From the NCBI RefSeq assembly GCF_002994005.1, contig NZ_POSN01000001.1, positions 186,001-250,000 of the forward strand: a stretch of DNA of 64,000 nt. Reading direction: 5' to 3'. How positions within the stretch are numbered: position 1 is the stretch's first letter; each line of letters begins with the position of its first letter. The translations under genes were made by a program, and so were the position numbers. The DNA is from Apilactobacillus quenuiae. Lineage in GTDB: Bacteria > Bacillota > Bacilli > Lactobacillales > Lactobacillaceae. Positions 332-15,898 of the stretch are shown one piece after another. The notes under the pieces were generated by a model that saw nothing but the letters and a program-made list of their open reading frames with translations, was not told the DNA's origin and did not search any database.

Positions 332-937
332 TTGAAACTAGTTATTTTATTGGTAATTGCATACTTGCTAGGTTCCATTCCTAGTGGTATATGGATTGGA
401 AAATGGTTCTTCAATGTTGACGTTAGAAAACATGGATCGGGTAATATTGGTACAACAAATACCTATAGAGTATTAGGCAAAAAAGCAGGTACTGTTGTTA
501 TGATTATAGATATATTAAAGGGAACAATAGCAACTTCATTGCCTTTACTTTTCAATGTAAATATATCACCTATCATTTTTGGCTTATTTGCAATTGTAGG
601 TCATACATTTTCAATCTTTGATAAATTTAAAGGTGGAAAAGCCGTTGCAACTAGTGCTGGAATGTTACTAGCTATTCATCCAGTATTATTTTTATGTGCA
701 TGTATTTTTGAATTATCATTTACTTATATAACAAGTATGGTAAGTTTGGCAAGCATGATTTCATTTCCATTAATTGTAATTTTATTGTTTCTAGATAAAG
801 ATCCATGGCTGGGTACAATCGGTTTATTATTAACCATCTTTATTTTTATTAGACATAGAAAGAATATTATTAGAATTAAAGATGGAAATGAAAACTTAGT
901 CCCTTTTGGTTTGATATATAATAATAAAAACAAATAA
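332..937 (+). CDS. plsY: Acyl-phosphate:glycerol-3-phosphate acyltransferase PlsY
   Basis: An integral membrane enzyme that transfers the acyl group from acyl-phosphate to glycerol-3-phosphate, the first acylation step of phospholipid synthesis in Gram-positives. The 201-residue length is normal. The family motifs are present in order: GSIPSG (14-19), GSGNIGTTN (35-43), DILKG (60-64) and GHTFSIFDKFKGGKAVAT (90-107). Several hydrophobic segments fit the known multi-spanning topology. The start is TTG, fixed by GGAGGA just upstream. It stands alone on the plus strand, divergent from parE, and ends in its own terminator. Confidence 0.96.
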   Translation: MKLVILLVIAYLLGSIPSGIWIGKWFFNVDVRKHGSGNIGTTNTYRVLGKKAGTVVMIIDILKGTIATSLPLLFNVNISPIIFGLFAIVGHTFSIFDKFKGGKAVATSAGMLLAIHPVLFLCACIFELSFTYITSMVSLASMISFPLIVILLFLDKDPWLGTIGLLLTIFIFIRHRKNIIRIKDGNENLVPFGLIYNNKNK

Positions 938-966
938 CCTTATTTTTAGGGTTATTTGTTTTTATT
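929..966 (+). terminator. plsY rho-independent terminator
   Basis: An 11-bp perfect stem (929-939 pairing with 950-960) is followed by a run of T. It starts inside the last codons of plsY. Confidence 0.85.
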
Positions 967-988
967 ATGTTTAGTTAAAGTAACTTTT
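962..988. repeat. Operator-like repeat, copy 1
   Basis: A 27-base stretch is almost identical to 15019-15044, differing by one extra T. Its core is the inverted repeat AGTTA-AAG-TAACT (973-985). Here it lies between two converging terminators, where no promoter is needed. See copy 2 and the findings. Confidence 0.5.
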
Positions 989-1005
989 AATTTATACAAT
1001 ATAAT

Positions 1006-15018: not shown

Positions 15019-15044
15019 TTATTATGTTAGTTAAAGTAACTTTT
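15019..15044. repeat. Operator-like repeat, copy 2
   Basis: Nearly identical to 962-988. The inverted repeat AGTTA-AAG-TAACT is at 15029-15041, just downstream of the candidate -10 and 24 bases before the start of the recombinase-like gene. That is a position fitting a repressor site. The regulator is unknown. Confidence 0.5.
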
Positions 15045-15064
15045 GACATTTTAGAGGTGCAAAA

Positions 15065-15898
15065 ATGACTACAAATAATTATCCTTATCAAAAAAGCTTT
15101 GAAAAATACTTAAACATTAACGGACTGGCTAAGGTCACAATTAAAGAATATACAAGCACTTTAATTGATATGTTTGAATATTTATCCAATTTTAATATTG
15201 GTTACCAAAAGAACCACCATGTTAATCAATTGTTTGATCGTGATATCCAACAATACATGAACATGTTAGTTGAAAAAAGACAGATTAATAATTCCACATA
15301 TAACAAAATATTGTCACATATAAATATTTATTTTAAATATTTATTTAGTCATGATTTTTCGGAAAAATTGCCTACTTTAACATTAAAAGGTAGAGATCGT
15401 AACAAGAAATCTAAAATCAACATCAAATGGATCGCAGATATGCCAAAAATTTTAAACAATCCAAATATTCATCCATATACTAAAATGACATTATTATTAA
15501 TAAGCAAAGGTTTTAAGTCTTCGGAATTTTTACAAAGCAATTTTTATAAAATCTTCTTAAAAATCAAATTCAATAATTATGAATCGAAATTTGTCGAACA
15601 ATTTAATGACTTTATTAAACCTATTCAAAATAAACAATCTTCAAAAGATATATTTTTAAAGCAGCGGCTTTCCAATGATCCTCATTTAACTTTACCTGGA
15701 CTGCATAAATATCTAAAACCAAGTGAAGAATATCTATCATTTAGTCTAAGCCCAACTGATCTATTTCAAGGTTATATTTTAAATTATGTAGTAAAAAATC
15801 CAGGAGAAAATGAATTTGAGCTTTCAAATCATCTTAATCTGGATTTAGCATCAGTTCTTTATTATAAAAAATTATCAACAAAAACAATAGAAGACTAA
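15065..15898 (+). CDS. Degenerate tyrosine-recombinase-like protein
   Basis: A 277-residue protein. Its first about 95 residues look like the SAM-like core-binding domain of XerC/XerD (SFEKYLNINGLAKVTIKEYT). The region aligned to the catalytic domain has lost most key residues: the first arginine block reads SKGFKSSEF with Lys151 instead of Arg, and the HxxR block reads SPTDLFQGY with neither His nor Arg. A possible His256 and Tyr266/267 remain. It is therefore unlikely to recombine DNA and may be a domesticated DNA-binding protein. AGAGGTG precedes the ATG. It is the only plus-strand gene in a long minus-strand region and overlaps the TPR gene tail-to-tail by 4 bases. Confidence 0.75.
   Translation: MTTNNYPYQKSFEKYLNINGLAKVTIKEYTSTLIDMFEYLSNFNIGYQKNHHVNQLFDRDIQQYMNMLVEKRQINNSTYNKILSHINIYFKYLFSHDFSEKLPTLTLKGRDRNKKSKINIKWIADMPKILNNPNIHPYTKMTLLLISKGFKSSEFLQSNFYKIFLKIKFNNYESKFVEQFNDFIKPIQNKQSSKDIFLKQRLSNDPHLTLPGLHKYLKPSEEYLSFSLSPTDLFQGYILNYVVKNPGENEFELSNHLNLDLASVLYYKKLSTKTIED

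What the first reader, a model, noticed from the sequence alone, without database searches (positions are those of the whole stretch)
15065..15898. Tyrosine-recombinase-like gene that has lost its catalytic arginines
The N-terminal core-binding domain looks like XerC/XerD, but the positions of the two catalytic arginines read Lys151 (GFKSSEF) and a Gln/Phe in SPTDLFQGY, and the histidine of the HxxR motif is also gone. A terminal His and Tyr may remain. The frame is intact, has a good RBS and a possible operator, and is the only plus-strand gene within a long minus-strand block, so it looks maintained rather than decaying. It may be a domesticated DNA-binding protein, perhaps acting with the XerC/XerD proteins encoded on either side. 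I have not seen a function described for it.
Basis: partly seen in the sequence, partly recalled or inferred. Interest (0 to 1): 0.7.

Follow-up and report, generated by a model that had tools for sequence, protein, structure and literature searches.

The report
Dead recombinase, probable replication-fork trap
A gene that looks like a dead DNA-recombination enzyme seems to have become the protein that stops DNA copying at the far end of the chromosome in lactobacilli, which would be a third, independently evolved system of this kind in bacteria.

Summary
The 277-aa ORF is a full-length homologue of XerD (profile-profile E 1.7e-11) that has lost ArgI (now K151), the catalytic-Lys hairpin and the HxxRH triad (now T231/F234/Q235); only the Tyr position (Y266) remains. 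It is not decaying: the family is in 106 of 251 Lactobacillaceae genomes, and dN/dS is 0.02-0.10 in 14 pairs.

Its DNA site shows what it may do. GTTAAAGTAAC lies in the gene's promoter (window 15030-15040) in many genera, often even where the gene has moved. The same site recurs at a few places around the dimer-resolution site dif, often in gaps between convergent genes. It is polar: left of dif on the minus strand, right of dif on the plus strand, for 54 of 55 sites in 21 genomes. In two Levilactobacillus genomes the gene lies far from the terminus, yet sites flank dif as predicted.

This is the layout of a replication fork trap (Tus-Ter, RTP-Ter). RTP is absent from 100 of 100 genomes searched. 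I propose a third trap, built on a pseudo-recombinase. DNA binding and fork arrest are inferred, not shown.

The parts
15065..15898 (+). Gene of the pseudo-tyrosine-recombinase (277 aa), proposed terminator protein of the fork trap
   Evidence: ORF; domains; lost catalytic residues; conserved family; dN/dS
15027..15049 (+). Proposed Ter-like site in the gene's own promoter region (core GTTAAAGTAAC at 15030-15040), 28.6 bits, 42.6 kb right of dif, plus strand as the polarity rule demands
   Evidence: Conserved upstream element; exact match; PWM score; distance
971..993 (+). Second proposed Ter-like site (core 974-984), 26.3 bits, in the convergent gap plsY(+)/galM(-), 28.5 kb right of dif; identical to the first over TTAGTTAAAGTAACTTTT
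   Evidence: same gap occupied in G007, G009, G010 and in five genomes of genus g55
921..968 (+). Terminator-like hairpin behind plsY (332-937 +), directly before the second site, so the site lies in a gap that is probably little transcribed

Best explanation
The gene encodes the terminator protein of a replication fork trap in Lactobacillaceae. A XerD-like recombinase lost its active site but kept the two-domain DNA-binding fold. It binds an asymmetric site of about 18-23 bp (core GTTAAAGTAAC, consensus TTAGTTAAAGTAACTTTTTACAA). A few such sites flank dif, in opposite orientation on the two chromosome arms, so that a fork coming from the origin passes the sites of its own arm, crosses the terminus, and is stopped at the sites of the other arm, which it meets from the GTTAAAG side. 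One site sits at the gene's own promoter, so the protein controls itself. Shown here: the dead active site, the maintained gene, the conserved promoter site, and the polar dif-centred array. Inferred: that this protein is what binds the sites, that it represses its own promoter, and that it arrests forks.
For: 1) Dead active site in a full-length XerD homologue, under purifying selection. 2) Promoter site: in 80 loci, 42 of 44 copies of GTTAAAGTAA[CTA] lie 20-100 nt upstream of the gene on its strand, in 40 loci, expectation 0.007; kept in relocated genes of Levilactobacillus and Lactiplantibacillus and in 4 of 5 members of the diverged genus g54. 3) The same site recurs around dif and is polar: 54 of 55 sites, 21 genomes, 14 genomes with the strand flip across dif (or, in G113, across the GC-skew peak), median distance 31.6 kb (dif). 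In the window's genome GC-skew peak (158.0 kb), gene-strand switch and dif (158.4 kb) coincide. 4) Sites in convergent gaps, where no transcription direction can explain polarity, are polar in 19 of 20 cases (my count). 5) Prediction met: Levilactobacillus G263 and G232 have the gene 1.0-1.3 Mb from dif (circular distance, positions), yet the only hits of 17 bits or more in 200 kb are one minus-strand site left and one plus-strand site right of dif. 6) Extended site pattern in 47 of 106 genomes with the gene and 8 of 145 without it, p 1.3e-13; reversed control 16 of 106 and 19 of 145, p 0.71. 7) The gene is head-on to replication in 23 of 23 genomes where gene and terminus could be placed (my count). 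8) Both known traps have a ter site in the promoter of an auto-regulated terminator gene (PMC10331603 passages).
Against: No binding or fork-arrest data. The protein-site link is by conservation and association, which shared descent inflates. Polarity within one genome is not rare: 16 of 72 permuted words with 5 or more copies are fully polar, and 48 of 614 repeated non-coding 11-mers, because genes are co-oriented. One of 55 sites breaks the rule (G074, 4 kb across dif). 59 of 106 genomes with the gene have no exact extended pattern, partly because their sites vary (Limosilactobacillus, Levilactobacillus). Companilactobacillus-like G018 has the gene but no clear site within 80 kb of dif. The A. 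kunkeei group has lost the promoter site though it keeps the fni site. One of the five sites of the window's genome (C1:46787) lies in coding DNA (mutM-like).
Confidence: 0.7

Rival explanations
1. Terminus organiser or segregation factor: the protein binds the polar sites around dif to guide FtsK/XerCD action or sister-chromosome separation (closer to the reader's idea of acting with XerC/XerD), not to stop forks.
For: Sites centre on dif; the protein is a XerD homologue; in G107 and G256 the gene starts 0.4 kb from dif.
Against: The few strongly polar sites and the site in the promoter match the two known fork traps. KOPS-type guides are, from recall, far more numerous per genome, and MatS is not polar.
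Confidence: 0.14
2. Auto-regulated transcription factor like MrpR with a small regulon; the positions near dif are incidental.
For: The site is just upstream of the gene in many genera; MrpR shows a recombinase fold can be a repressor (PMC10516654 passages); some sites are near starts of other genes (lspA, L322; YdjM-like gene, L184).
Against: Many sites lie in convergent gaps, not promoters; strand flips at dif in 14 genomes; sites stay at the terminus when the gene leaves.
Confidence: 0.08
3. The polar site array is real, but another, unidentified protein binds it; the gene is only one of the promoters that carry a site.
For: No binding data; the kunkeei group keeps gene and fni site without the promoter site; Secundilactobacillus-like genomes keep a site at the old locus after the gene moved.
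Against: Gene and site co-occur (47 of 106 against 8 of 145); the promoter site follows the gene through relocations; the gene encodes a DNA-binding fold.
Confidence: 0.07
4. Decaying recombinase gene.
For: Catalytic residues lost; two interrupted copies among 80 loci; a truncated copy in G061.
Against: dN/dS 0.02-0.10 in 14 pairs; reads through in the other loci and keeps its ancestral neighbours in many genera.
Confidence: 0.01

Closest known systems
Tus-Ter replication fork trap (E. coli and relatives)
   Same: A few non-palindromic sites of opposite orientation on the two sides of dif; a site in the terminator gene's promoter; plasmid-borne relatives
   Different: Protein unrelated by sequence family (neither Tus nor RTP among Pfam matches); other site sequence; fork arrest not shown
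RTP-Ter replication fork trap (Bacillus subtilis)
   Same: Bacillota; site in the promoter of the auto-regulated terminator gene
   Different: RTP family absent in 100 of 100 genomes searched, found in the B. subtilis control; RTP binds as dimers to two half-sites, which was not tested here
MrpR (YopR), master repressor of prophage SPbeta
   Same: Tyrosine-recombinase fold that lost R and H residues, kept the Tyr, and works as a DNA-binding protein (passages)
   Different: MrpR also keeps the Lys; it is a prophage repressor; its sequence was not compared here
XerD, chromosome dimer resolution at dif
   Same: Full-length profile homology; works around the same locus
   Different: Active-site residues lost; sites flank dif instead of being dif
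XerD-like protein XerDL of streptococci (recalled)
   Same: Degenerate Xer paralogue in Lactobacillales (recalled)
   Different: Not aligned here; no hit of this family in 23 of 23 genomes of other families of the order in a single-sequence search

Membership tests
Active tyrosine recombinase (Xer, PF00589) | Homologous two-domain fold | tested here: met
   SAM-like N-terminal domains and full-length profile alignment to XerD; no structure model
Active tyrosine recombinase (Xer, PF00589) | Catalytic R, K, H, R, H/W and Y | tested here: not met
   Only the Tyr position is kept; PF00589 not matched
Replication fork trap (functional class) | Few asymmetric sites flanking dif, opposite orientation on the two arms | tested here: met
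   54 of 55 sites, 21 genomes; prediction met in two Levilactobacillus genomes; negative in G018
Replication fork trap (functional class) | Site in the promoter of the terminator gene | tested here: met
   absent in some clades, e.g. the A. kunkeei group
Replication fork trap (functional class) | The protein binds the sites | not testable with these tools
   Inferred from co-occurrence and from the promoter site following the gene
Replication fork trap (functional class) | Polar fork arrest | not testable with these tools
   Needs 2D gels or marker-frequency analysis
Tus family (PF05472) | Sequence profile | tested here: not met
   Protein scanned against all of Pfam, E up to 1: Tus not among the four matches. 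Genomes were not searched for Tus
RTP family (PF02334) | Sequence profile | tested here: not met
   Not among Pfam matches of the protein; 0 of 100 genomes have a match
MrpR | Sequence homology to MrpR | not tested
   MrpR sequence was not compared; phmmer against PDB sequences gave no match at E 1 or better

The most novel reading that the evidence does not exclude
Lactobacillaceae have a third, independently evolved replication fork trap, whose terminator protein is a dead XerD relative that has swapped dimer resolution at dif for polar fork arrest around dif. Relatives on megaplasmids may run traps of their own.
Probability: 0.65. Interest if true: 0.93.

Novelty: new variant of a known kind. 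Interest (0 to 1): 0.87.

Why it matters
[quoted passage not shown] A third, unrelated trap in a large family of food and gut bacteria would show that the solution was invented again, from an enzyme family that acts in the same chromosome region. It offers natural gains, losses, relocations and site changes for testing what a trap is for, and would give a function to genes that plasmid records annotate as 'site-specific integrase'.

Tried and rejected
Operon or functional partner: neighbours were clustered in 80 loci; no constant partner (cca/ypiA ancestrally; adenosine-deaminase-like and polysaccharide-deacetylase-like genes in Levilactobacillus, a lipoprotein-like gene in Secundilactobacillus; these names are by my reading of the sequences). 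Rejected.

Simple auto-regulated repressor: first idea after the promoter motif. Dropped as the whole explanation when other sites proved to lie in convergent gaps; kept as a rival.

Changed site in the A. kunkeei group: its galM and fni gaps were searched for another motif shared with the promoter. The fni gap holds the ordinary site; the galM 3' side shows none.

Other databases: no match in the phage collection, no relative in viral contigs by the single protein, none among PDB sequences. HTH_24 is hit weakly at the C-terminus in 9 of 20 members (best E 9e-4); I read it as the recombinase C-terminal helices, not as a separate domain.

Plasmid trap: on megaplasmid pHN3 two intergenic GTTAAAATAAC sites (18.6 and 18.3 bits) lie on one side of the GC-skew peak; too few to judge. 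An exact 18-mer search of viral contigs gave 7 stretches, not followed up.

Single-genome polarity as proof: rejected by my own controls. The consensus scan found no convincing sigma-70 promoter on the plus strand before 15065, so 'just after the -10' is by eye only.

Literature: searches listed no report that I recognised as a fork trap in lactobacilli or a recombinase-fold terminator. I saw listings and the passages named, not whole papers. The library holds open-licence PMC papers only. One search used whole-word matching, so its term 'lactobacill' could hardly match and it tells nothing; one search was swamped by the word Lactobacillus.

Selection of sites in the 55-site table: for the genomes, the matches of the extended pattern on the contig that holds dif. 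For G263, G232, G217, G195 and G236, PWM hits of 17 bits or more in the stretches fetched. For G113, the two hits above 20 bits, against a GC-skew peak because no canonical dif was found. For G203 and G074 (other right flank), exact 11-mers in non-coding DNA chosen by context, out of 13 and 8 exact copies in those genomes. Left out: weaker PWM hits, mostly coding and not all polar (listed); G134, whose dif was not found in 59 kb, with two minus-strand sites; G009 and G219, with consistent order but no dif search; G018, with no clear site. In G000 the next hit (18.4 bits, C1:333,961, +) also fits; two coding hits of 17.3 bits do not. A Markov-1 random sequence of 400 kb gives 0-1 hits of 20 bits or more, against 5 seen. 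The PWM was trained on promoter sites, including those of the genomes' own relatives.

Full report
What was claimed. A gene at 15065-15898 (+) resembles XerC/XerD at its N-terminus but has lost its catalytic residues, looks maintained, and has a possible operator.

The gene. The ORF is present as described. Pfam gives integrase SAM-like N-terminal domains and no catalytic domain; NCBIfam gives weak partial matches, best to XerD (E 1.1e-7, far below its cut-off). A family alignment of 47 sequences against an alignment of Lactobacillaceae XerD gives 258 aligned columns with hhalign (prob 97.6, E 1.7e-11, global mode, a single comparison): ArgI is K151, the Lys hairpin meets gaps, H/R/H of the HxxRH motif are T231/F234/Q235, and the nucleophile is Y266. 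The ArgI position varies in orthologues (K, S, P, R, Q, T or N in 20 sequences). In the diverged genus g54, four of five members (L136, L138-L140) keep the second Arg but not the His (TPGKLRLSY), and L137 keeps both (TTHKLRMSF); the second copy in G060 (L142) keeps the Arg. This suggests stepwise loss. Y266 and Y267 are invariant in the 47 aligned sequences.

Maintenance and history. A profile search of 251 Lactobacillaceae genomes is bimodal: 106 genomes at E 1.8e-27 or better (one, G061, a truncated copy), then matches at 6e-10 and weaker in open frames of mostly about 300 aa, ordinary Xer-like proteins (list counted). They fall in 17 of the 40 genera by my reading. None of 23 genomes of other families of the order matched in the single-sequence search. 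Of 80 named loci kept from 103 found, two have an interrupted frame. dN/dS is 0.02-0.10 in 14 pairs, some with saturated dS; for the window against A. micheneri it is 0.048, against 0.124 for cca and 0.055 for ypiA. The slot between cca and ypiA is kept in Apilactobacillus (not in A. xinyiensis and A. ozensis), Philodulcilactobacillus, Fructilactobacillus, Limosilactobacillus, Ligilactobacillus and Paucilactobacillus, with an extra gene in some, and on the ypiA side in Loigolactobacillus; it was left in Levilactobacillus, Secundilactobacillus, Lactiplantibacillus and Companilactobacillus.

The promoter site. Upstream regions share GTTAAAGTAAC, mostly 27-60 nt before the start codon. In the 80 loci, 42 of 44 copies of GTTAAAGTAA[CTA] lie in the 20-100 nt upstream of the gene on its strand, in 40 loci; expectation 0.007. 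Many Levilactobacillus and both Lactiplantibacillus loci have it (0-2 mismatches) although the gene has moved, as do four of the five g54 members (exact). It is not found upstream in the A. kunkeei group, A. xinyiensis and A. ozensis, several Secundilactobacillus and Levilactobacillus, L102 and Companilactobacillus.

Other sites. The window holds a second exact copy at 974-984, between plsY and galM, identical over 18 bp and just behind a terminator hairpin. The genome holds 10 exact copies against 2 of the reversed control; five are in non-coding DNA by my ORF calls. Across genomes, most non-coding copies share a T-rich left and an A-rich right flank, and many lie between convergent genes: rsmF/fni (Apilactobacillus, including the kunkeei group, and G195; 3' of fni also in g54), plsY/galM (Apilactobacillus and five genomes of g55), yitT/ypiA (four Secundilactobacillus-like genomes and G232), dnaD/pbp (Fructilactobacillus); others lie between tandem genes, e.g. 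topA/xerC (Fructilactobacillus). Some copies lie on small contigs beside conjugation- or phage-like genes.

Terminus and polarity. dnaA was placed in 20 of 20 genomes and a dif-like site in 22 of 24 (0-3 mismatches to a recalled consensus; other 3-mismatch hits are noise). In the window's genome dif is at C1:158,441, the cumulative GC skew peaks at 158.0 kb and gene orientation switches there. The sites lie at -111.7 and -28.2 kb (minus strand) and at +20.1, +28.5 and +42.6 kb (plus strand) from dif; the window's two are the last two. The outermost left one lies in a mutM-like coding sequence. Over 21 genomes 54 of 55 sites obey the rule, and 14 genomes show the flip. The exception is the fni-side site of G074, 4 kb across dif. 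Many of the 55 are orthologous; I count about 20 distinct loci. The gene itself is head-on to replication in 23 of 23 genomes where gene and terminus could be placed (my count), which explains why it is the only long plus-strand gene in its block.

A prediction. If the sites serve termination, they should stay at dif when the gene leaves. In Levilactobacillus G263 the gene is at 0.40 Mb and dif at 2.08 Mb of 2.99 Mb; in G232 they are 1.02 Mb apart on the circle. In 200 kb around dif the only hits of 17 bits or more are 2050.9(-) | dif 2084.5 | 2108.1(+) and 766.5(-) | dif 786.4 | 820.0(+) (kb). Limosilactobacillus-like G113 gives 225.4(-) | skew peak 345.0 | 393.1(+). Companilactobacillus-like G018 gave no clear site, a negative result.

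Controls. Within one genome polarity is not rare, because genes are strongly co-oriented: 16 of 72 permuted words with at least five copies are fully polar, and 48 of 614 repeated non-coding 11-mers. The weight therefore lies on the convergent-gap sites (19 of 20 polar, my count; such gaps are 0.8% of the 400 kb around the window), on recurrence in many genera at partly different loci, on the Levilactobacillus prediction, and on association with the gene: 47 of 106 genomes with it against 8 of 145 without it carry the extended pattern, p 1.3e-13, while the reversed pattern shows no association, p 0.71. Of the eight without the gene, six matches are in coding DNA, one is in a convergent gap (G072) and one is near a contig end (G131). 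The p-values ignore shared descent.

What it works like. Two unrelated fork traps were described, Tus and RTP, in four clades; both use non-palindromic sites around dif that stop forks leaving the terminus (PMC6549158, abstract and passages). Both genes are auto-regulated with a ter site in the promoter, and plasmid R1 carries ter sites (PMC10331603, passages). In type I traps one of the innermost sites lies next to tus, and two sites can suffice (PMC8707476, passages). The present system has this kind of layout; in the window's genome the innermost sites are 48 kb apart. RTP is absent in 100 of 100 genomes searched, its B. subtilis control rings. MrpR shows that a dead tyrosine recombinase can be a specific DNA-binding protein (PMC10516654, passages). 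A recombinase clamp on one asymmetric site offers a simple cause of polarity, but that is inference.

Membership. It is a homologue of tyrosine recombinases but fails their catalytic test. It is not a member of the Tus or RTP families. It meets the sequence-level features of a fork trap; protein binding and fork arrest were not testable. Hence 'new variant of a known kind', confidence 0.7.

Noticed in passing
plasmid NC_017499.1 197726-198547 (L416:47726-48547): Ligilactobacillus salivarius megaplasmids carry a diverged homologue (about 29% identity; 46 plasmid records of lactobacilli in all, 32 of them Ligilactobacillus). pHN3 also has an annotated xerS at 82.4-83.5 kb beside its GC-skew peak (85 kb) and two intergenic GTTAAAATAAC sites, both plus strand, at 92.4 and 160.0 kb.
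   Followed up: partly
G107 C1:476286 and G256 C1:163221 (genus g55, Lactiplantibacillus-like): A dif-like site lies only about 0.4 kb upstream of the gene.
   Followed up: no
L190, L193, L209, L213, L218, L220; G000 C1:333961: Site copies on small contigs or beside conjugation-like and ArpU-like phage genes, as if mobile elements carried Ter-like sites, as plasmid R1 does for Tus.
   Followed up: partly
L309, L310 (Ligilactobacillus-like genomes G267, G126): A site lies between a metallophosphatase-like gene and a gene for another tyrosine-recombinase-like protein of about 307-309 aa; whether that protein is active was not checked.
   Followed up: no
G018 (Companilactobacillus-like), C1:1915223-2055222: Gene present 7.5 kb from dif and head-on, but no recognisable site around dif: the site may have changed with the diverged protein.
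   Followed up: partly
A. kunkeei group (L031-L038, L040): The promoter site is gone although the gene is intact in all but L040 and the fni site is kept in the three genomes looked at.
   Followed up: partly
G000 C1:351295-351861 (L003), outside the window: A third tyrosine recombinase with a PF00589 domain in the window's genome, open frame 384 aa.
   Followed up: no
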